Below are positions 1,962 to 24,209 of a stretch of DNA of 64,000 bases, piece after piece; within the stretch, counting starts at the first letter, position 1, and every line of letters starts with the position of its first letter. Location: positions 62,001 to 126,000 of the forward strand of contig NZ_NEVQ01000013.1 in the NCBI RefSeq assembly GCF_002261185.1. Reading direction: 5' to 3'. The DNA comes from Bordetella genomosp. 4 (lineage in GTDB: Bacteria > Pseudomonadota > Gammaproteobacteria > Burkholderiales > Burkholderiaceae_B). The translations under genes and the position numbers were made by a program. The notes under the pieces are model-generated. The model had not been told where the DNA came from. It worked only from the letters and a program-made list of their open reading frames with translations, and did no database searches.

Positions 1962-2116
1962 GAACTTTCTCCGCTCACTCAATGAAAAAACATATGAAGG
2001 CGGCAATGATGCGTCAGAAATATGACAGTAATACTTCCGGGGCGAAAGCAGTGGGCAGGTTTGCGCGCCCCGGGAATGCCGCCCGCGCAGACAGATACGT
2101 GTTTCGCAGACGGACG

Positions 2117-2147
2117 TTGACACAAAGCGTTTGGAGCGCGCTATAGT
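2117..2147 (+). promoter_or_regulatory. Candidate sigma-70 promoter for the DUF3313 lipoprotein gene
   Basis: TTGACA at 2117-2122 and TATAGT at 2142-2147 are separated by 19 bp, slightly longer than the optimal 17. They lie 91 bp upstream of the lipoprotein ATG at 2238, in the divergent region between this gene and gspG. Sequence match only. Confidence 0.45.
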
Positions 2148-2237
2148 GCTGTGTAGCTTTTGTTACGTTATGGTAGGAAACAGGACAAAAGTTTACAGCG
2201 CTACTTCTCTGGGTCTACTTTCCGCAAAGGAAAATCA

Positions 2238-2927
2238 ATGAAAATCAATAATCCAGTGCGTGCAATTTGTTTGGGGATATTGGCCGCTTTCTTGGTGTCG
2301 GGTTGTGCGACGCGGTCCGCGCCTAAAGAGTCGGGCTTTTTGCCGGATTACAGCCGTCTGCACCAGGAAACCACCCCTGATGGTGGCACTCGGCAGGTCT
2401 ATGTGAACCCTGCGTTTACGCCGGCACGCTACAAGGCGGTATGGCTTGACACCGTTAAGTATTACCCAGAGCCGCAGGCCACGGCAGATGTGTCGATGGA
2501 AACCTTGACCCAGATCCGCAATATGATCGACCAAACGCTGCGTAGCAAGATCGGCCAGCAGGCCCGTTTGGTAGACCGTGCAGGGCCAGGGGTAGCACAT
2601 GTGCGTATCGCCATCACCACCGTCGGGACAGAGCAGCAATCGCTGAAGGCTTACCAATACATTCCTATCGGCCTGGTATTGACTGGTGCCAAAGCCGCCC
2701 TGGATGGCGGGCTGCCGCGTGATGCGACGATTGCAATCGAGACTCACGTCACAGACAGTATGTCGGGCGAGATGTTGTATGCCGCCGTGCGTGGAGGCAC
2801 AGGCGAACGGATCACGAGCGCCAGCCAGGGCAAGGGAGGGGTTCAGGTGGCCGATCTGCAGCCGCTGATCAACGAATGGGCCACCGGTGCTGCCCGTGAG
2901 GTCCGCAAATACGTCAAAGGAAAATAA
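2238..2927 (+). CDS. DUF3313 family outer-membrane-type lipoprotein
   Basis: 229 residues from the ATG at 2238, which has AGGAAAA just upstream; in-frame codons before it lack a ribosome site. The lipoprotein signal ends in the lipobox VSGC with lipidated Cys23. The rest has the DUF3313 pattern: FLPDYSRL near the N-terminus, ARYKAVWLDTV, a helix with RSKIGQQARLVDRAGPGVAHVRIAITTV, and a glycine-rich C-terminal segment. Function is unknown; family members are predicted periplasmic-side lipoproteins. It is on the opposite strand to the secretion genes and sits between gspC and gspG, so it may be unrelated cargo or an accessory lipoprotein. Confidence 0.75.
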   Translation: MKINNPVRAICLGILAAFLVSGCATRSAPKESGFLPDYSRLHQETTPDGGTRQVYVNPAFTPARYKAVWLDTVKYYPEPQATADVSMETLTQIRNMIDQTLRSKIGQQARLVDRAGPGVAHVRIAITTVGTEQQSLKAYQYIPIGLVLTGAKAALDGGLPRDATIAIETHVTDSMSGEMLYAAVRGGTGERITSASQGKGGVQVADLQPLINEWATGAAREVRKYVKGK

Positions 2928-2997
2928 GCGGCAGCGCAGCGACGATCGGGACCGCAGCAATAGCCGGGTGCCGATCGTGCGGGAGACGTGAGCCGAC

Positions 2998-3441
2998 CTA
3001 GGGCACGGCCACAATCCCCGCCGGGACGGCGGATAGTTTGGGCGCCGCCACGCGCAAACGCGCTCCATTGCGGTCCAATTCGACGCCGTTGGTCGAGACC
3101 TCGACGAGGGACAATCCCGGTGCGAGCTCCGTACCGATGCGATAGGCGCGGGCCGGCGCGCCATCCACGCTCAATACGGCGGACCCTTGGGTTCCCGCCG
3201 CAATCAAACCCAACACCGTGATCTGCGTGTCCAGGACCCCATCGGTGCCAAACAGCATCGCAACAGAGCGTGTGTCCGATACCGGGGCGCTGCTGGTATT
3301 GAGCGCGGGGGGCAAATCGTCGGGCGCAGGCGCCAACAGAATTGCGCTCCATAGTCCCACACCCGCGGCCGCCGCGGCTATTGCGAGAACGCGTACAGTG
3401 CGTGGGGCAGAGGGCAGCGTAAAAGTCGGACGCAGGCGCAT
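2998..3441 (-). CDS. gspC: Short type II secretion protein GspC
   Basis: 147 residues. A short cytoplasmic N-terminus is followed by one transmembrane helix (about residues 17-37, VRVLAIAAAAAGVGLWSAIL). The periplasmic homology region then reads SVAMLFG...ITVLGLIAAGTQGSAVLSVDGAPARAYRIGTELAPGLSLVEV, which matches the T2SSC domain. GspC links the inner-membrane platform to the GspD secretin. The protein ends after the homology region and lacks the C-terminal PDZ or coiled coil of the ~270-residue enterobacterial form; short forms are usual in beta-proteobacteria. It is co-oriented with gspG-J but separated from them by the lipoprotein gene. Confidence 0.8.
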   Translation of the reverse strand: MRLRPTFTLPSAPRTVRVLAIAAAAAGVGLWSAILLAPAPDDLPPALNTSSAPVSDTRSVAMLFGTDGVLDTQITVLGLIAAGTQGSAVLSVDGAPARAYRIGTELAPGLSLVEVSTNGVELDRNGARLRVAAPKLSAVPAGIVAVP

Positions 3442-3526
3442 AAAGCAAATGGTATCGCTAGGACGAAAGCGTGGACCCTAACGTAGATTTATGACAGCAG
3501 TATGTGTGTCACGCCAGCAGCCAGCA

Positions 3527-7835: not shown

Positions 7836-7860
7836 GCGCGGGGAGTCTTGCATCGCCGGA

Positions 7861-7894
7861 TGCACGGGCCGTGCCGTCACGCACGGCCCGTGCA
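7861..7894 (+). terminator. Strong GC-rich hairpin between gsiB and gsiC
   Basis: A perfect 14-bp stem (TGCACGGGCCGTGC at 7861-7874, its complement at 7881-7894) with a 6-nt loop lies in the 103-bp gap. Only TTT follows. Such hairpins after the binding-protein gene commonly stabilise the upstream mRNA and lower permease expression; that role is inferred here. Confidence 0.7.
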
Positions 7895-7938
7895 TTTGGC
7901 GTTGACCGTTCGAAATCCCGAGTTTTTCAGGTTTCTTT

Positions 7939-8883: not shown

Positions 8884-9758
8884 GCGCAAATACTGCTACG
8901 GCTGCCGCCGTTACGCCGCCCCGCCGCCGCAATCGCGCCTGGGGTAAATTCAAACGCAATCGTGTAGCCTTGCTCGGGGCTGCTATCGTCCTGGCGATGG
9001 TATTGCTGGCGATCTTTGCTCCCTTGCTCGCGACGCACGATCCTTTTCAGACGAGTTTCATGACGATCCGCAAGGCGCCTTCCGCGGCGTTTTGGCTGGG
9101 GTCTGACGAACTGGGCCGGGACATCTATAGCCGCATGCTGTACGGCGCGCAGGCGTCTTTGATGGCCGGCGTCGTGTCTGTGGCCATCGCCGTGCTCATC
9201 GGTGTGCCGCTCGGCCTGGTGTCGGGCTATTTCGGCGGCTGGGTCGACAGCATCGTGTCGCGCTGCACCGAGGCTTTGCTGGCGATTCCGTTTTTGATTC
9301 TGGCCATTGCGCTGGCGGCGTTTCTAGAGCCGAGTCTGACCAACGCCATGATCGCCATCGGGGTGTCGGCTGCGCCGAAATTCATACGATTGGCGCGCGG
9401 CCAGGTATTGGCCGTCAAGAGCGAAGACTACGTGCAGAGCTCGCGCGCGCTGGGGGCATCGGATACGCGCATCATTGCGCGCCACATCCTGCCCAACATC
9501 ATGCCGCCGTTGATCGTGCAGGCGACCATCACCATTGCCACGGCCATCATTGCGGAGGCGAGCTTGTCGTTCTTGGGGCTGGGCCTGCAGCCGCCAAATC
9601 CGTCATGGGGATCGATGCTGAACACGGGCAAAAACTTTATGGTGCAAGCACCCTGGATGTCGATTTTCCCGGGCTCTGCGATTTTTCTGGTGGTATTGGG
9701 GTTCAACCTGCTGGGCGATGGCCTGCGTGACGCGCTCGACCCGCGGCAGGAGAAATGA
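8880..9758 (+). CDS. gsiD: Peptide/glutathione ABC transporter permease, GsiD-like
   Basis: 292 residues. A DppC/GsiD type permease with a basic cytoplasmic N-terminus, a first helix ([22 protein letters not shown]), the motif [23 protein letters not shown] typical of this subfamily, and the EAA loop [26 protein letters not shown]. It forms the heteromeric channel with the preceding permease. Both ends overlap neighbours by 4 bp (ATGA), a tight operon arrangement. Confidence 0.9.
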
Positions 9759-11794
9759 CGATGACGACAAACAGGGATTCCAAGAGCGCTGCGCAACATA
9801 TGGATGCCCAGCGCGTCGTGCAGGTCGATGGTTTGACCGTGCAGTTCAAAACGCCGGATCGCGTTGTCAAAGCCGTGCGCGATGTGTCGTTTCATGTCGA
9901 CCGTGGCGAAACGCTCGCTATTGTTGGCGAGTCGGGCTCCGGAAAATCCGTGACGTCGTTGGCGTTGATGCGTTTGGTAGAGTACGGCGGTGGCCGCATC
10001 GTGAATGGCGAGATGCGCTTGCGTCGCCGCGATGGCAGTGTGTTGGACTTGACCCGCGCTAGCGATACAGTGCTGGAGCGAGTGCGCGGTGCCGACGTAG
10101 CGATGATTTTCCAAGAGCCGATGACCTCGCTGAATCCCAGCTTTACGGCAGGTTCGCAGATCGCCGAGGCGTTGCAACTGCACCAGGGGCTGGACAGTGC
10201 CGGCGCTCGCGCCGAGACATTACGCATGCTCGAGCGCGTCCGTATTCCCGAGGCACGCGCCATTCTCGATCGCTATCCGCATCAGCTATCCGGCGGGATG
10301 CGTCAACGTGTCATGATCGCAATGGCGCTGTCGTGCAAACCGCAGTTGTTGATCGCAGACGAACCGACCACGGCGCTGGATGTGACCATTCAAGCACAGA
10401 TCCTGCAATTGATCCGTCAATTGCAGGAGGAAATGGACATGGGGGTGATTTTCATCACGCACGACATGGGCGTGGTGGCTGAGGTCGCCGATCGTGTGCT
10501 GGTCATGTACCGTGGCGACAAGGTCGAGGAGGGCGGCTCGGACGAGATCTTCGCCGCGCCGCGCCATGCCTATACGCGCGCCTTGCTGTCTGCCGTGCCG
10601 CGTTTGGGCGCGATGAAGGGCACGGACGAGCCGGCGCCATTTCCGCTATTGCAGGTGACGGATGCCGGGCGTACTGCCGGCGCGAAAGCGAATGCACAAG
10701 CTATCGCGGGCGCGATGGCCGCAGACGAGGACACGTCGGTGGCGGGCACGGTTCCCGTGAGCGATGCTAATCGTGCGGCGAACCTCAGGAGCGCCGCGGA
10801 TGCCCCTGCGACGTCGTCTTTGGCCGAGGTCCCGCAGAGCACGGTACGCCGCGACAACGGCCCCGTCTTGCGCGTAAAGGACTTGGTCACTCGTTTCGAC
10901 ATCACCGGTGGTATTTTCGGTCGTGTGCAGAAAAGGGTGCACGCCGTGGAACGCGTCAGTTTCGATCTCTATCCGGGCGAGACTTTGGCCTTGGTAGGCG
11001 AGTCAGGCTGCGGCAAGACCACGACAGGCCGCTCGCTGCTGCAACTGGTGAAGAGCCAAGGCGGCAGTATCGAGTTCGATGGTCAGGATATCGGCAGCCT
11101 GCGCGGCGCGGCCATGCAGACTTTGCGGCGCCACATTCAGTTCATTTTTCAGGATCCCTTTGCCTCGCTGGACCCGCGCATGACCGTGGGCTATTCGATC
11201 ATGGAGCCTTTGCTGATTCATGATGTGGCCAAAGGCAAGGCGGCGCAAGAGCGCGTGCGCTGGCTGATGGACAAATGCGGGTTGATGCCCGAGATGATTG
11301 ACCGCTATCCGCACGAATTTTCCGGCGGCCAGCGTCAACGCATCTGCATTGCCCGTGCGTTGGCGTTGAATCCGAAGGTGATCGTGGCGGACGAGTCGGT
11401 GTCGGCGCTGGATGTGTCGATTCAGGCTCAGATCGTCAATCTCTTGCTCGATCTGCAACGCGAGCTGGGGATATCGCTGCTGTTCATCTCGCATGATATG
11501 GCGGTGGTTGAGCGCATCAGCCATCGTGTGGCGGTGATGTATCTGGGGCAGATCGTCGAGATCGGCCCGCGTCGAGCGATCTTTGAAAATCCGCAGCATC
11601 CGTATACGCGCAAGCTGATGGACGCTGTGCCTATCGCAGATCCGCAACGCCGCCATCGCGAGCGTTCATTGCTCGTTGATGAGATTCCCAGTCCGGTGCG
11701 TCGGGTGGGGGATGATCCTGTCGTGGCGCCGCTGGTGGCAGTGGGCGAGGGGCATTTTGTCGCTCGTCATGCTGTGGGGGTGTATGCGGGATAG
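9755..11794 (+). CDS. gsiA: Fused double ABC ATPase of the peptide/glutathione importer, GsiA-like
   Basis: 679 residues with two complete ABC domains. The first has Walker A GESGSGKS at about 58-65, signature LSGGMRQR near 178 and Walker B LLIADEP near 199. The second has Walker A GESGCGKT near 415, signature FSGGQRQR and Walker B VIVADES. Each is followed by an oligopeptide-transporter C-terminal region. It energises GsiC/GsiD. The Ala-rich linker between the halves (about 295-370) makes it longer than E. coli GsiA (623 residues). The fused form is characteristic of glutathione importers. ATG at 9755 overlaps the gsiD stop; a second ATG at 9761 is possible. Confidence 0.9.
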
Positions 11795-11831
11795 GGGGTG
11801 AGTTGTTGGCGTAGATCTTCTCTGTGAAGAC

Positions 11832-11960
11832 GTCGCTGTCGGTGCCTGGAAGCCTTACCGGGCCTATCGCCGCGACCAGGACAACCAGGGGCCTCGGCCC
11901 GCTTCGCGGGCTAAATCGCGGCTCTACGGCCCGGTAAGGCTTCCAGGCACCGACAGCGAC
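11832..11960 (-). repeat. 129-bp palindromic element A (33-bp perfect arms around a structured centre)
   Basis: Perfect 33-bp inverted arms lie at 11832-11864 and 11928-11960. The 63-nt centre contains a hairpin (GCCCGC at 11897-11902, GCGGGC at 11906-11911) and a second pairing (GCCGCG with CGCGGC). Read on the minus strand, the centre starts GTAGA and ends GATA, as does element B at 16043-16177. The element fills most of the 317-bp gap between gsiA and the autotransporter gene, so it may also act as a transcript end for gsi. No coding potential is evident. The repeat family was not identified. Confidence 0.85.
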
Positions 11961-12111
11961 TCACGAGAGCGGCATGCTTAGGGTGCTGGTTGCCGGCTGT
12001 TTCAGTTCTTTTTGTCCGAAAATCTGCTTAGTTGGACGTGGCGCCTCGTTTTTGGCTTACGGCGCAGCATTATCCGCGATTTCGCTATTTACTGATTACG
12101 GAGTCGTGTGT

Positions 12112-13923
12112 ATGCCTAAGGTCTTCGGGACGATCGTCCCCCGCAATGAGCATGATTACTTCGCTGCGCGTCATTCGACGCGGCGCTTTGGAGGTACAAC
12201 ATTATCAGCCGCCATACTAGGTGTTGCGTTTGCATCGGCCGCTGCTCCCGTTGGTGCAGAGACGTCTGGACAGGAAGGGGGCAGATTGTCTGCGCTTACA
12301 AACGGGGCGCGTACGATGGTAGGGTGGGGACATGCTGGGGTACGGCATGTTTGGGATAATGCGCCCACAAAGGAGAATGCCATCCCTTATTTCGCGGGTG
12401 CCATTGCGGGCGGGGGCGTTTCCATTGCGAAGCACATGGCCGTTCGGGCTCTAGGAAGCAATCATCCCTACGTGACGGGAGTGGCTAGCGTCCCCGTTTT
12501 ACATTATGTCGTGGATCCTTTGATCAACACTGCGCTGTCATATGGAGAGGCGCCAGCGGCTTTTCATGAAGGCTTCGCCGTGGGGCAGAGCGCCGTTGCT
12601 TTCGGCTCTCTGGCTGTCGATCTTTACGCTGCTGCCGGTGCGGTCAAACAAGGTCTTCAGGGGGGGCCGCAGCGTCCCGACCCTCAGGACTATGCGCGTG
12701 CTCAGAATAAACTCGCCGCTGAGAAGGTTGGACTCGCAAGTGCTGAGAGCAGATACGAGGCAGCTCAGAGGGTTGAGGCGGTGGTGTATGGTGGTGGCGG
12801 CGGTCGCCGTGTGGCCGACGCTACGCTCGTCCTAGATAACGCTCGGAACGCTGTCAAGGCTGCCGAGCAGGATTTTAGTCTGCTCCACCAAAAGAACTTG
12901 GCTGTGGACGCATGGGAGCAGCGGGTCACGCCGACTACTGCAATGTCTACGTTCCCCGCGGATGCGCATGGAATTGCGCGGACTGAGACCGGATATGCCG
13001 GCCTGTGGTGGGCCGCAGGAAAGGCCGTCAGTGTACCTCTTGAGTGGATGGGCATATGGGCGGCCCAGGAGAACGTTGAGGACGAGAGCGATAAAGAAGC
13101 CAAGTTGCCCGGTGGGCCCAGCGGTACGAGTCAACCGCCTTCGGCGTCCACGATGCCAACGCTGTTGGCGCAGGATGCCGCAAAGGATGGCGAGGCGGCA
13201 ACAGTCGCGGGCGGCGAAAACCTCGATCAAGGTGGCCCCCAAAAGGCGTACGACGGGACGGATCCTGATGCGTCCGATCTGAGCGCAGGGGGGGATAACC
13301 CCGCTCCCAAGCATGAAGGCCCGCGAGTATCTGAGCGAACGGCGGGAGATCAAAGTGCGATGAAGGATCGCGATTCAGGAATCGAAGAGCAGAAAGTAAA
13401 AGCACAACAATCGGAAGCACTGCTGACAGAAGAACGATCGGCAGAGAAAGGGCCGGCAGAGGAACAGACGGGCGCAAAGCAAGTCACAGAGGGGCCAACC
13501 GATGACGAGCAATCCAAAACGCCGCAAGCCGACGCCGCCGAGATATTGAAGCAGCCTGAGGCGCCTGTGGTGACGTTGGAGGCATCCCCGCCCGTCCATC
13601 AAACTGCCATCCGACCGGCTGCCGGCTCATACAACAGCAACGCCTGGGCAGCCAACACGATGTTTCAGATGAATCTGAGTGATCGTCTCAACAGCTATTA
13701 CAAAGACGAATCCAGTCCGGACGCAGGCAATGCATGGATCCGATACAGTGGCTCGAGCATCCGTCAGCGAGACGATTCGGATCAGCTGTACACCAAGGGC
13801 GACAAGAACGCTGTCATGATGGGCGTGGACATGTTCATGCCCTCTACCAGCGGCCGCGATCGATTCACGATGGGTGTGATGGGGGGGCTATGGTCACTAT
13901 ACGGGCCGCACGCATTCGGATAG
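12112..13923 (+). CDS. Autotransporter with unusual helical/acidic passenger, frame broken at a G7 run
   Basis: 603 residues as the sequence stands. The ATG at 12112 has GGAG upstream. A long signal peptide (about residues 1-49, ending SAAAPVGA) leads to: a Gly/Ala-rich hydrophobic region (90-180), a predicted coiled coil (190-275), an acidic low-complexity linker (320-490), and the start of a pertactin-type autotransporter beta-domain (from about 508, NSNAWAANTMFQMNLSDRL). No beta-helix repeats are visible. The frame ends early after FTMGVMGGLWSLYG. Removing one G from 13881-13887 continues into the barrel at 13888-14554, giving a 813-residue protein ending KYRY. This may be a phase-off allele, a pseudogene or a base-call error. 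Confidence 0.75.
   Translation: MPKVFGTIVPRNEHDYFAARHSTRRFGGTTLSAAILGVAFASAAAPVGAETSGQEGGRLSALTNGARTMVGWGHAGVRHVWDNAPTKENAIPYFAGAIAGGGVSIAKHMAVRALGSNHPYVTGVASVPVLHYVVDPLINTALSYGEAPAAFHEGFAVGQSAVAFGSLAVDLYAAAGAVKQGLQGGPQRPDPQDYARAQNKLAAEKVGLASAESRYEAAQRVEAVVYGGGGGRRVADATLVLDNARNAVKAAEQDFSLLHQKNLAVDAWEQRVTPTTAMSTFPADAHGIARTETGYAGLWWAAGKAVSVPLEWMGIWAAQENVEDESDKEAKLPGGPSGTSQPPSASTMPTLLAQDAAKDGEAATVAGGENLDQGGPQKAYDGTDPDASDLSAGGDNPAPKHEGPRVSERTAGDQSAMKDRDSGIEEQKVKAQQSEALLTEERSAEKGPAEEQTGAKQVTEGPTDDEQSKTPQADAAEILKQPEAPVVTLEASPPVHQTAIRPAAGSYNSNAWAANTMFQMNLSDRLNSYYKDESSPDAGNAWIRYSGSSIRQRDDSDQLYTKGDKNAVMMGVDMFMPSTSGRDRFTMGVMGGLWSLYGPHAFG
13881..13887 (+). repeat. Homopolymeric G7 tract at the autotransporter frameshift
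   Basis: Seven G follow GTGAT at codon 590 of the gene starting at 12112. With seven G the frame stops 36 bp later; with six G it runs on through the complete beta-barrel to 14554. Short poly-G or poly-C runs are known slip-strand sites in surface-protein genes, but seven is short, so phase variation is only a possibility. Confidence 0.8.
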
Positions 13924-13939
13924 CTTCGACTATACGAGC

Positions 13940-14554
13940 GTGGGCAGAGTCGATGGCTACAGTGTGGGTCTGTATGGTACTTATCTACAAGATGTCGGCG
14001 CGCAGCAGGGGCTGTTCGTAGATAGCTGGTTGCTGTGGAACCGGTTCAAAAACAACGTTAAAGGCGGGGATCTGCCGAGAGAGAACTACGTCTCAAAGGG
14101 CGTCACCGCGTCGTTGGAGTTGGGATACAACTTCAATCTCGCCGAGCGCAATAACGTGAAATATGTGGTGCAACCCCATGCACAGGCTGTTTATCAAAAT
14201 GTGCGTGCCCACGATTTCCGCGAAGCCGACGGCACTCGTGTGGATTTTCTCAACGGCTCGCGTGTGCAAACGGCCGTCGGGGTGCGCGCCGCCGCGCATA
14301 TCTCCACCGGATTGACGTCTGTCGTCACCCCGCATATCGAAGTCAATTGGCTGCATTCGACCAAAGGCTATGGTGTGCGACTGGATGACGCCGGCTCCGA
14401 TATGAATGGCGGACGGAATGCCGGCCAACTGAAATTGGGCGTACAAGGCGATCTCAATCGTCAGGTATCGCTCAATATCGAGCTGTTCCACAATCAGGGC
14501 AATGGCGGTTATCGTGAGACGGGGGGCAACCTGGTCGCAAAGTATCGCTACTGA
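13940..14554 (+). pseudogene. C-terminal beta-barrel part of the frameshifted autotransporter
   Basis: This frame continues the autotransporter of 12112-13923 in the +1 frame. In-frame coding sense begins right after the G7 run (GYGHYTGRTHSDSFDYTSVGRV...). It carries alternating amphipathic strands of an autotransporter translocator domain (YSVGLYGTYLQD, VDSWLLWNRFKNNV, TASLELGYNF, VVTPHIEVNWLH, LKLGVQGDL) and ends in the outer-membrane signature VAKYRY. The GTG at 13940 is not a convincing start and no ribosome site precedes it, so this is not an independent gene. Without frame repair the passenger could not be exported through this barrel. Confidence 0.8.
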
Positions 14555-14584
14555 TGCGCTGCGTCTAGGCGATTATTGATGGCC

Positions 14585-14655
14585 GGGAACTGGGAAAGCA
14601 AGCGGGCCAACGATGTTTTTTCGGCCATTTCTGACGCCTGACCGCCCCAGTTCCC
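14585..14655. terminator. Terminator-like inverted repeat after the autotransporter gene
   Basis: GGGAACTGGG at 14585-14594 pairs with CCCAGTTCCC at 14646-14655. Inside lies a smaller GGCC/GGCC pairing around a T6 run near 14617. It follows the autotransporter stop by 30 bp. A structured transcript end is likely; it is not a textbook rho-independent terminator. Confidence 0.4.
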
Positions 14656-14667
14656 CGCTAGCGTTAG

Positions 14668-14718
14668 ATCCAACGGGTATGATTAGCCCTTTTTCAAAAC
14701 GGGCGTCTCCCGTTGGAT
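14668..14718 (+). promoter_or_regulatory. Long 5' hairpin directly upstream of yaeQ
   Basis: ATCCAACGGG (14668-14677) pairs with CCCGTTGGAT (14709-14718), and inside it GCCC (14686-14689) pairs with GGGC (14701-14704). The 3' arm contains the only ribosome-site-like GGA, six bases before the yaeQ ATG at 14725. Folding would hide it. A regulatory role is inference. Confidence 0.5.
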
Positions 14719-14724
14719 GTCACC

Positions 14725-15261
14725 ATGGCCCTACGCGCAACGATCTATAAAGCTGACCTACACGTAGCCGACACTGATCGGCATTATTACGGTAGTCATG
14801 CCTTGACGATCGCACGGCATCCGTCAGAGACGGACGAGCGCATGATGGTGCGCTTATTGGCATTCGGATTGCACGCTCAAGAAGGCCTGGCCTTCACCAA
14901 GGGTTTGAGCGAAACAGATGAACCCGATGTATGGTTGAAGGACCTGACTGGCGCCATCGATTTGTGGATCGAAGTCGGCCAGCCTGACGAACGCCGCATT
15001 CTGAAAGCCTGCGGCCGTGCCGGACAAGTCATCGTCTATTGCTACGGTGGTCATGCCAGCACCGTGTGGTGGGACGGCGTACGCAACAAACTCGAACGCG
15101 CCCGCAACCTGCGCGTCGTACATTTACCGGCCGCGCAGACCCGCGAACTCGGCGAATTGGCCGAACGTACGATGGATGTGCACGTCAACATACAAGACAG
15201 CGCCGTCTTTGTGTCTGCAGACAAAGGGCAGGTGACCGTCGAGCCCGAAATCTGGCGTTAG
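14725..15261 (+). CDS. yaeQ: YaeQ family protein
   Basis: 178 residues from the ATG at 14725 (MALRATIYKAD, the conserved start of the family). Matches to E. coli YaeQ run end to end: LARHPSETDERMMVRLLAF, LSETDEPDVWLKDLTGAIDLWIEVGQPDERRILKACG, STVWWD, and AERTMDVHVNIQDSAVFVS. YaeQ has a PD-(D/E)XK nuclease-like fold; the E. coli protein was once linked to suppression of RfaH loss, but its biochemical role is not settled. An upstream TTG at 14713 is less likely. The gene lies behind a stable 5' hairpin and converges on ubiC. Confidence 0.92.
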   Translation: MALRATIYKADLHVADTDRHYYGSHALTIARHPSETDERMMVRLLAFGLHAQEGLAFTKGLSETDEPDVWLKDLTGAIDLWIEVGQPDERRILKACGRAGQVIVYCYGGHASTVWWDGVRNKLERARNLRVVHLPAAQTRELGELAERTMDVHVNIQDSAVFVSADKGQVTVEPEIWR

Positions 15262-15369
15262 ATCGTTTTCCGTGGGATGGCACGGCTCCGGGATTCGTAC
15301 GAGATGCTGATCTGCAGAGCAGCGCCGATCTGAGCGACTGCTTGGGCCACCAACCAGCCTGCTGAATCG

Positions 15370-15936
15370 CTACTTGGCCGAACCTTGTTCCGCGATTCGC
15401 CAAAAACCCGGCAAAAAGCATTCGGCGACCAACAGCGGCTGCCCATATCGCCAAAATACCGAACGCCGCGCCCACAGCGCACCGTTGTCTCCCTCGGCCT
15501 GTACGCGTCGCGCTGTCGCATAAAACGGTACGGGCGAAGCCAGTCTGCGGCATACAAAGGGCGAACGTTGAATCGTGCGATCGTGATAAAGCATGTCCGC
15601 CAACGGCCGCGTGCGCAGCCGGCGTATCCCTTGCCACACGCCATGAGAGGCAGCCAATGGCGTCAGACTGCGCGCCACCACGCTGTCCACACCGTCCACG
15701 GACATCAGAATTTCCCGTACCCAAACAGGACACGCTACCTCAAGACCCATACCACGAGCCTCATCCAGTGGGACCCCGTCGGCATATTCGTTCAATACAC
15801 GCAAATCCATTTTGCCCAACTGCCGCAACCCGGCCGTCAAGGCGCCGGGACGCATCAACCAGTATTTATGAGCAGGGGTCAACGAAGGCGCAACCGTAGG
15901 CTGCCAACCAGCGGCGAGAGGAAGAAAGGCTGTCAT
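15370..15936 (-). CDS. ubiC: Chorismate--pyruvate lyase UbiC
   Basis: 188 residues. UbiC removes pyruvate from chorismate to give 4-hydroxybenzoate, the first committed step of ubiquinone synthesis, in the cytoplasm. Supporting features are the conserved core WVREILMSVDGVDSVVARSLTP, a central RPLADMLYHDRTIQRSPF segment, and the C-terminal ARRSVFWRYGQPLLVAECFLPGFW with the conserved product-site Glu in VAECF. Length is close to the family norm (165-190). It is convergent with yaeQ (108-bp gap) and divergent from the pseudouridine synthase gene across a 365-bp region with palindromic element B. Confidence 0.9.
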   Translation of the reverse strand: MTAFLPLAAGWQPTVAPSLTPAHKYWLMRPGALTAGLRQLGKMDLRVLNEYADGVPLDEARGMGLEVACPVWVREILMSVDGVDSVVARSLTPLAASHGVWQGIRRLRTRPLADMLYHDRTIQRSPFVCRRLASPVPFYATARRVQAEGDNGALWARRSVFWRYGQPLLVAECFLPGFWRIAEQGSAK

Positions 15937-16042
15937 AGCCGCTATTATGCCAAGTCTGTCCGCAACAGATTAAACCCCGGCCCTCACTGTTCCAGACAAA
16001 AGCACCAAATTCGATGTATCTCAAGGCATGCCTACACCGAGA

Positions 16043-16177
16043 GTTTCTGCCGCGTGCCCAGTGCCGCGCCGGCCCGTAGATCGGAGGGCAGCCCCGCGCA
16101 GCGGGGCCGAGGCCGCCTGGTGTTGCGGCCGAGCCGTAGTGATAGGGCCGGCGTGGCACTGGGCGCGTGGCAGAAAC
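16043..16177 (+). repeat. 135-bp palindromic element B, related to element A
   Basis: 33-nt arms at 16043-16075 and 16145-16177 are complementary except at three positions, each of which is a G-U wobble when read as plus-strand RNA. The 69-nt centre begins GTAGA, ends GATA, and contains GCCCCGC/GCGGGGC (16091-16097, 16101-16107) followed by CGAGGCC and CCTGGT. These match the centre of element A on its minus strand, although the arms agree at only about half the positions. It lies between the divergent ubiC and rluF-like genes; the rest of that 365-bp gap shows nothing clear. Confidence 0.85.
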
Positions 16178-16301
16178 GGTTTAAGAACGCCACCACGCTG
16201 ACCAGAACCAGACCCTGAACCTGTCCTGAGCTCCTTCGGCCTAAAATACCCCCTTCGCTACACGCCCACATCACCAGTCGCGTAGCAGACCACCAAGGCA
16301 T

Positions 16302-17033
16302 ATGGAAAAAGTACGAATCTCAAAGCTGATGTCCGAGCGCGGCCTATGCTCGCGGCGCGAGGCCGATAGTTATATTGAGCGCGGTTGGGTCAAAGTCGAC
16401 GGCGTCGTCGTATCCGAGCTCGGCGCCAAAGCCTATCCCGGCCAGGTCATCACCCTGGAACGCGCCGCCCAGGCGCAGCAGACCTCTCGCGTCACCATCC
16501 TGATCAACAAACCCGTCGGCTATGTATCGGGCCAGGCCGAAAAAGGCTATACCCCCGCCGTTGCCTTGATCGATGCCCGTTCGCGCGACGCCAATGACCG
16601 CTCGCCGCTGCGATTTTCACGGGCCCATCTGCAGGGCCTCGCTGTCGCAGGCCGGCTGGATATCGATTCCCAAGGCCTGCTCGTGCTGACCCAGGACGGC
16701 CGCATCGCTCGTCAGCTCATCGGCGAGGACTCCGACGTAGACAAGGAATATCTCGTACGCGTGCAGGGGCGTCTGGACGAGCGTGGGCTGGCGCTGCTGA
16801 ATCACGGCCTATCGCTCGATGGCAAGCCGCTGCGTCCCGCCCAGGTCCGCTGGCAAAACGACGACCAACTCTGTTTTATCCTGCGCGAGGGCAAAAAACG
16901 CCAGATCCGCCGCATGTGCGAACTGGTGGGCTTGCGGGTCGTGGGACTGAAACGCGTGCGTATCGGCCGAGTCAGACTGGGCAATCTGCCGCAAGGGCAG
17001 TGGCGATATTTGCGGGACGACGAGCGCTTTTAA
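16302..17033 (+). CDS. rluF: 23S rRNA pseudouridine synthase, RluF/RluB family
   Basis: 243 residues. An N-terminal S4 RNA-binding domain ([30 protein letters not shown]) precedes a RsuA/RluB-type catalytic domain with the catalytic Asp120 in [15 protein letters not shown], the KEYLVRV strand and [16 protein letters not shown]. The C-terminal [13 protein letters not shown] resembles RluF. It isomerises a uridine in 23S rRNA; assignment to RluF rather than RluB is by the C-terminal match only. The gene is divergent from ubiC and convergent on the next LysR gene (45-bp gap). Confidence 0.85.
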
Positions 17034-24151: not shown

Positions 24152-24168
24152 GTATCAGCGGTAAAAAC

Positions 24169-24209
24169 GAAACGGGCGGCTCTTGCTCAAGAGCCGCCCG
24201 TTTCTTTTT
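24169..24209 (+). terminator. Rho-independent terminator of the efflux operon
   Basis: A perfect 17-bp stem (24169-24185 with 24188-24204) with a 2-nt minimal loop is followed by TTTTT. It ends the efflux operon and lies between convergent genes. Confidence 0.9.

What the first reader, a model, noticed from the sequence alone, without database searches (positions are those of the whole stretch)
11832..16177. Two palindromic elements share a conserved centre while their 33-nt arms diverge with pairing kept
Elements at 11832-11960 (minus orientation) and 16043-16177 (plus orientation) share a centre that starts GTAGA, ends GATA and carries a GCCC(C)GC/GCGG(G)GC hairpin followed by CGAGGCC and CCTGGT. 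Both have arms of exactly 33 nt. I count about 17 of 33 arm positions identical between elements, yet within each element the arms are complementary: perfect in A, and in B three exceptions that are all G-U pairs only if the plus strand is the RNA. The central hairpin also gains a matched C-G pair in B. This covariation suggests selection for a folded RNA (or cruciform) rather than a drifting dead repeat. ERIC-like in size, but ERIC elements do not vary this way in the arms, as far as I know.
Basis: partly seen in the sequence, partly recalled or inferred. Interest (0 to 1): 0.72.

Follow-up and report, generated by a model that had tools for sequence, protein, structure and literature searches.

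The report
Bordetella hairpin repeat with rewritten arms
The two palindromes belong to a family of dozens of scattered, hairpin-forming repeats in Bordetella-like bacteria whose two arms change together so that they keep matching, probably because one arm is repeatedly copied from the other; this is a good natural case for separating copying errors from selection for a folded molecule.

Summary
A and B are two of about 60 copies, in this genome, of an intergenic element with conserved flanks, a conserved branched centre and two ~34-bp arms of free sequence. The family occurs in environmental Bordetella, B. ansorpii and at least two allied genera; no Rfam family reaches its cut-off in the window. 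In 179 oriented elements 96% of arm pairs are Watson-Crick and G·U outnumbers A·C 126:28, so one strand matters. In orthologous copies arm pairs change on both sides together (72 double Watson-Crick changes). These show no clear transition excess over neighbouring DNA; arms diverge at 0.5-0.8 of its rate. One ortholog has its centre inverted between the same arms, and G-C/T-A pairs exceed C-G/A-T pairs, as predicted for intrastrand template switching. Best reading: a REPIN-like dispersed hairpin element whose arms are rewritten in place by template switching on a preferred strand. Selection on the folded strand, as RNA or single-stranded DNA, probably adds to this. Expression was not tested; single copies between co-directional genes are 20 sense, 19 antisense. 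New variant of a known kind.

The parts
11832..11960 (-). Element A, hairpin proper (read on the - strand: 5' arm 11928-11960, centre 11865-11927, 3' arm 11832-11864)
   Evidence: CM match 11820-11972 (-) 132.4 bits, but A is one of the 21 sequences of model R1
11897..11911 (-). P3 hairpin of A, 6-bp stem with C-GAA-G triloop
   Evidence: sequence; C-GNA-G loop in 156 of 168 short-centre elements
11961..11988 (-). Conserved 5' (left) flank of A
   Evidence: flank profile over the 61 listed G000 copies
11805..11831 (-). Conserved 3' (right) flank of A (GTCTTCACAGAGA type); outer limit approximate
   Evidence: the 3' arm ends 37 nt after the stop of the ABC-transporter ATPase gene 9755-11794
16043..16177 (+). 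Element B, hairpin proper (5' arm 16043-16075, centre 16076-16144, 3' arm 16145-16177)
   Evidence: CM match 16031-16189 (+) 117.9 bits, but B is in the training set of R1
16091..16107 (+). P3 hairpin of B, 7-bp stem with C-GCA-G triloop
   Evidence: sequence
16015..16042 (+). Conserved 5' (left) flank of B
16178..16200 (+). Conserved 3' (right) flank of B (GGTTTAAGAACGCC type); outer limit approximate

Best explanation
A and B are members of a dispersed, hairpin-forming intergenic element (about 190-220 bp; arms mostly 33-35 bp; conserved flanks and a conserved three-way-junction centre) of the REP/REPIN/MITE kind in environmental Bordetella and relatives. The plus strand (GTWGA...GATA) folds; its centre, with a C-GNA-G triloop hairpin and tandem G-A pairs, folds back. 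The arms stay complementary in place mainly because one arm is rewritten from the other (intrastrand template switching or arm-to-arm conversion), the 5' arm more often being the donor; an added preference for the folded plus strand (as single-stranded DNA or RNA) purges A-C but tolerates G-U. Shown: family, covariation, strand specificity, paired changes in place, one inverted centre, pair asymmetry. Inferred: template switching as the cause, the centre as fold-back primer, mobility by an unknown factor, any function at 3' ends of genes.
For: Covariation in 21 copies. 179 of 216 distinct inverted-repeat finds were oriented and kept: 5811 WC, 126 G-U, 28 A-C, 73 other pairs. Orthologous copies: 19 pairs between two B. 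ansorpii genomes and 12 with genomosp. 13 gave 26 and 46 double WC changes against 21 and 23 single ones; if the arms changed independently I would expect about one compensated pair in the first set (my arithmetic). Doubles are 17 ts:9 tv and 20:26; near flanks have ts:tv 1.36 and 0.73, so about 35 of the 72 are expected to be transitions and 37 are (my arithmetic). Arms differ by 5.7% and 14.8%; near flanks by 7.9% and 18.1% in local alignments or 11.4% and 29.2% in global ones. Same arms and flanks with the centre inverted: L175/L196, a described product of template switching (PMC8604942, passages). Mid-arm G-C:C-G 1796:1083 and T-A:A-T 557:315; 45 against 6 (5 ties) among 56 arms under 60% identical, the direction PMC8794818 predicts for intrastrand switching (sections 8, 9).
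Against: G-U over A-C is not predicted by unbiased copying and is not a mutational strand bias (C/T:A/G differences 137:166 in flanks, 25:40 in centres), so strand-specific selection or strand-specific correction is needed too. PMC8794818 reports the same pair asymmetry for RNA stems in general, so it does not exclude RNA. In the closer ortholog set the doubles lean to transitions (17:9). Arms at 0.5-0.8 of the flank rate are slower than neutral. One inverted centre, no mutation caught in the act. Counts share ancestry. No transposition factor and no clean empty site were found; six absences that I could read are deletions with remnants, one could not be read.
Confidence: 0.5

Rival explanations
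1. Functional structured RNA: the plus strand is transcribed and the long stem with three-way junction is selected (mRNA 3'-end barrier, insulator between convergent genes, or free ncRNA). Double changes are ordinary compensatory evolution.
For: G-U over A-C 126:28 and 76:4 in 77 elements of the ansorpii/genomosp. 13 set, not a mutational strand bias; compensation in place in orthologs; pair asymmetry as in RNA stems (PMC8794818); between convergent genes in 24 of 40 assignable G000 loci against 4 of 29 baseline gaps in the window; arms slower than flanks.
Against: No clear transition excess in double changes; singles in tandem gene contexts 20 sense:19 antisense; no U-tract follows the hairpin; over all loci fetched, convergent contexts are 61 of 132 clusters (no baseline for those genomes); no Rfam family reaches gathering score. 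No expression data here.
Confidence: 0.25
2. Non-autonomous mobile element whose folded single-stranded plus strand is the substrate of a structure-recognising nuclease or recombinase (as for REPINs or IS200/IS605; attC by recall); pairing is selected for mobility.
For: Inverted doublets: 47 (-,+), 1 (+,+), 0 (+,-) in the loci fetched; near-identical copies with unrelated surroundings (L041 against L040/L044/L046); patchy distribution (17 of 268 family genomes); C-GNA-G triloops in 156 of 168, a motif described as extraordinarily stable in DNA (PMC4686876, passages).
Against: Compensation happens in resident orthologous copies, where selection for mobility is not expected; no Y1/RAYT gene at E<=0.001 in G000, G003, G007, G014, G018, G135 or G136, though G001, G002, G004, G005, G006 and G008 have one each; no clean empty site or target duplication found.
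Confidence: 0.2
3. Chance or assembly artefact, or recent inverted duplications of host sequence.
For: Perfect long arms could in principle arise by one template-switch insertion.
Against: About 60 copies in G000 and matches in 16 other genomes of the family, with the same architecture in named assemblies.
Confidence: 0.02

Closest known systems
REP/BIME/REPIN (RAYT- or TnpA-REP-associated)
   Same: Extragenic palindromes, inverted doublets with variable spacer, folded single strand; compensatory changes in the REPIN hairpin are reported (PMC3116915, passages). 29 of 179 elements begin their centre with GTAG, the usual REP tetranucleotide (PMC8266576, passages).
   Different: Each unit is 130-250 nt with ~34-bp arms instead of 20-50 nt; 142 of 179 begin with GTTG, TTTG or TTGG-like letters instead; no Y1/RAYT gene was found in 7 of 13 carrier genomes, among them G000, G007, G135 and G136, while the copy-rich G002 and G006 have one.
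Bor-1/Bor-2 stem-loop families of B. bronchiseptica/pertussis (PMC2267715)
   Same: Intergenic, structured, Bordetella; Bor-2 is listed as 167 nt with 17 copies, 6 of them full (passages).
   Different: Their sequences are not in the text held, so identity could not be tested; whether any held genome is of the pertussis group is unknown.
BRE, Beta-proteobacterial repeat element (PMC3110155)
   Same: GC-rich, mostly intergenic repeat in Bordetella; the bprJ transcripts overlap one locus (abstract and passages).
   Different: 75-91 bp, in tandems of variable number, reported also in Polaromonas and Delftia; mine has long arms and inverted doublets. Not compared by sequence.
ERIC and other bacterial MITEs
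   Same: Size, palindromy, intergenic location (recalled).
   Different: Arms share no sequence here; no conserved terminal repeat or target duplication seen. ERIC sequence itself not compared.
Template switching at quasipalindromes
   Same: Arm homogenisation and spacer inversion (PMC8604942, passages); paired changes and correction by the 5' base proposed for RNA genes (PMC8794818, abstract and sections 8-9).
   Different: Here a whole dispersed bacterial repeat family with ~34-bp arms shows the pattern across species.

Membership tests
REP/REPIN with RAYT | 20-50-nt palindrome preceded by a GTAG-type tetranucleotide | tested here: not met
   Arms ~34 bp plus 60-151-nt centre; GTAG at the centre's edge in 29 of 179
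REP/REPIN with RAYT | Cognate Y1 transposase (RAYT) in the genome | tested here: not met
   PF01797: none in G000, G003, G007, G014, G018, G135, G136; one each in the other 6 of 13 genomes; not met for the window's genome
REP/REPIN with RAYT | Doublets in inverted orientation | tested here: met
   47 of 48 doublets (-,+); 16 of 16 in G000
Structured RNA family | Covariation supporting a common fold | tested here: met
   strand asymmetry; but copying can mimic it
Structured RNA family | Match to a curated family | tested here: not met
   No Rfam 15 match at gathering score in the window; MIR8788 hairpin match at 44.9 bits, cut-off 124
Structured RNA family | Transcript from the plus strand | not testable with these tools
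   no expression data
MITE | Conserved terminal inverted repeats and target-site duplication | tested here: inconclusive
   Arms are inverted repeats without shared sequence; similarity limits of recent copies seen but no duplication recognised
Template-switch maintained palindrome | Arm homogenisation plus spacer inversion in orthologs | tested here: met
   a single inversion case
BRE / Bor-2 | Sequence identity with the published repeat | not tested
   published sequences not held; only sizes and arrangement compared

The most novel reading that the evidence does not exclude
A self-perpetuating palindrome: a conserved, hyper-stable fold-back centre (C-GNA-G loop, tandem G-A) acts as a primer that keeps re-copying the 5' arm onto the 3' arm, so that the element preserves its hairpin form without preserving any arm sequence and persists across species as a structure-only repeat.
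Probability: 0.3. Interest if true: 0.75.

Novelty: new variant of a known kind. Interest (0 to 1): 0.5.

Why it matters
Compensatory change is the standard evidence for functional RNA. This family offers dozens of long, sequence-free stems per genome, with close orthologs, where the share due to DNA-level arm copying and the share due to selection can be told apart by spectrum, rate, centre inversion and strand asymmetry. That makes the proposal of PMC8794818, that template switching maintains hairpins, directly testable in bacteria, and it is a warning for covariation-based RNA discovery in palindromic repeats.

Tried and rejected
Composite transposon bounded by A and B: rejected; between three other widely spaced elements (C19) lie genes that look like ordinary housekeeping genes, and 46 of 48 doublets are 61-409 nt apart, two 661. 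REP/RAYT: rejected as a membership for this genome. Insertion beside intrinsic terminators: a terminator-like site lies within 200 nt on the right of 6 of 61, on the left of 1 of 61, background 3 of 600; too rare to define a target. Arms evolving faster than flanks: I noted this after (note) and withdrew it. Clean empty sites: not found; five absences in G136 and one in G135 keep remnants of the element, one (second comparison) cannot be read. The order-wide search with R2 (2 of 399 genomes) scored only 7 candidates per genome and is weak evidence of absence; the family search scored 11. First strict pattern in the window found nothing; by my reading it was mis-spaced by two. Rows dropped: 37 of 216 distinct inverted-repeat finds (orientation unclear or other centre size) before the counts; L018 from the first alignment; from the ortholog sets, L175/L196 (inverted centre), repeats of one locus, and hits without a partner element.
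Full report
What is there. Element A (11832-11960, read on the - strand) and element B (16043-16177, +) head the inverted repeats of the window and fold far better than shuffled sequence. A search of the genome with B gave 45 matches at E <= 10, 21 of them below 0.005; 20 of these 21 places (L018 left out) and A were cut out and aligned. A covariance model of these 21 (R1) found further copies; my list for later counts holds 61 places in the 5.53-Mb genome. They share a left flank of about 28 nt (AGCATCCGYGGCATGCCACTACTGYGAG), a 5' arm, a centre, a 3' arm, and one of two right-flank types. The usual centre is a three-way junction: P2, a P3 hairpin with 27 different stems but the loop C-GNA-G in 156 of 168 short-centre elements, and a P4 hairpin with tandem G-A pairs (CGAG...CGAG in 149 of 168). 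Some copies carry a 150-nt centre between the same kind of arms and flanks. Arm length is 33-35 bp in 123 of 179 elements.

Distribution. Among 268 genomes of the same family 17, G000 included, have matches at E <= 1e-5, in 5 of 43 genera; only 11 candidates per genome were scored. A pattern scan of named genomes gave 81 stretches, 80 of them listed, all in environmental Bordetella (genomosp. 2, 7, 13, petrii strains, sp. BOR01), B. ansorpii, Paracandidimonas soli and Mesopusillimonas faecipullorum. Matching contig lengths identify G135 as B. ansorpii SMC-8986T and G136 as strain H050680373, with 42 and 24 matches to a second model. Whether pertussis-group genomes are among the 268 is not known.

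Covariation. On 21 copies 95.1% of cells pair, 39 of 55 pairs have changes on both sides, and the covariation score is 0.603 (shuffles 0.180, slid partners 0.073-0.091). In 179 oriented elements (of 216 distinct finds) the arm cells are 5811 WC, 126 G-U, 28 A-C, 73 other. The G-U excess is 69:13 in 94 elements of loci found by a pattern in the centre, 43:7 in 58 of G000, and 14:8 in the remaining 27. It is not a mutational strand bias: in orthologs, C/T against A/G differences on the plus strand are 137:166 in flanks and 25:40 in centres. So pairing of one strand is what matters.

Change in place. I compared elements at orthologous positions. In 19 pairs between the two B. [quoted passage not shown] in 12 pairs with Bordetella genomosp. 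13 the numbers are 46 and 23 (46 and 24 in the unoriented count). The non-Watson-Crick states in single changes are G-U 25, A-C 3, other 16. Double changes are 17 transitions:9 transversions and 20:26, where near flanks give 1.36 and 0.73. Arms differ by 5.7% and 14.8%, centres by 4.5% and 7.3%, near flanks by 7.9% and 18.1% in local alignments (11.4% and 29.2% in global ones), DNA 300-1000 nt away by 4.2% and 8.9%. Compensation through tolerated G-U should favour transitions; over both sets no clear excess is seen, although the closer set leans that way. The orthologs L175/L196 have the same flanks and arms but the centre in opposite orientation. Arm homogenisation with spacer inversion is the described outcome of template switching (PMC8604942, passages read). 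PMC8794818 (abstract, sections 8 and 9 read) predicts that intrastrand switching corrects G-U by the 5' base and so enriches G-C and U-A pairs: in the middle of the arms G-C:C-G is 1796:1083 and T-A:A-T 557:315, with the same sign in 84 against 7, 42 against 8 and 25 against 1 elements by group (3, 8 and 1 ties), and in 45 against 6 (5 ties) of 56 arms less than 60% identical to one another. I therefore take templated copying as the main keeper of the arms, and a strand-specific preference as a second force.

Mobility and losses. Inside G000, L040, L044 and L046 are near-identical doublets in different surroundings, and L041 is a solo copy of their minus member that starts directly after a stop codon, with similarity from about 35 nt left to about 50 nt right of the hairpin. 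By the coordinates the intergenic B site is shorter by about 165-280 bp in G001, G002, G003, G005, G006, G007 and G008 and longer in G004; I read the sequence for G005 and G008 only. Six absences between the two B. ansorpii genomes that I could read (five in G136, one in G135) keep remnants of an arm or half the centre, so they are deletions; one could not be read. In L144 an IS110-family element (Pfam PF01548 and PF02371) sits in the P4 hairpin of the ortholog of an intact element in L209.

Arrangement. Close doublets are 47 (-,+), 1 (+,+), 0 (+,-) in the loci fetched. In G000, 24 of 40 assignable loci outside the window lie between convergent genes, 15 tandem, 1 divergent (3 more not assignable), against 4 convergent, 16 tandem, 9 divergent gaps in the window (gene calls by a simple codon model). 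Over all loci fetched, 61 of 132 clusters are convergent, 66 tandem, 5 divergent. Singles in tandem contexts are 20 sense, 19 antisense. B itself lies between divergent genes for chorismate lyase (15370-15936, -) and a pseudouridine synthase (16302-17033, +). So in G000 convergent 3' ends are preferred, but transcription direction is not.

Comparison. It works most like REPINs (inverted doublets, folded single strand, compensatory change; PMC3116915 passages), but it fails two REP features: unit size with tetranucleotide, and, in this genome, a RAYT gene (six other carriers have one). It has no Rfam match at the curated cut-off. BRE and Bor-2 are the published Bordetella repeats nearest in kind; a 26-30-bp Bor repeat is described too (PMC1590033, passages). 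Their sequences are not held, so identity with Bor-2 in particular is open. My searches for a description of this element listed nothing that I recognised as it; beyond the papers named I saw listings only.

Verdict.

Noticed in passing
window 11974-14554: An autotransporter gene, seen as two reading frames (11974-13923 without a Pfam match and 13940-14554 with the beta-domain), lies between A and a YaeQ gene; in G005 the ABC-transporter gene is followed by the YaeQ gene after about 75 bp, so this stretch is extra in G000.
   Followed up: partly
L034:1171-1322, L090:1775-1926, L028:1920-2071: A sister element type with 42-bp partly variable arms and a different centre (AGCGAGGGAAACCG...), in L090 forming the partner of a normal element and sharing its flank type.
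   Followed up: no
L071:633-832 and 1501-1721, L073:1407-1596: Similar long hairpins with larger centres in genomes of other genera (G013, G021); possibly distant relatives.
   Followed up: no
L144:2338-3360, inside an element spanning about 2041-3460: IS110-family transposase gene (PF01548, PF02371) inserted in the P4 hairpin of an element; the orthologous element in L209 is intact.
   Followed up: partly
L278 and L279 (G136): Two separate deletions remove the left arm and end at nearly the same point in P4, close to where the insertion of L144 lies.
   Followed up: no
L195:4614-4825, L077:1228-1491, L134:804-903, L171:1360-1538: Another short repeat (GGTGTCTGACACC-like) occurs in several loci of related Bordetella genomes.
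   Followed up: no
window 7851-7904 and 24164-24209: Two further inverted repeats with 22-24-nt arms and very short loops, of unknown nature.
   Followed up: no
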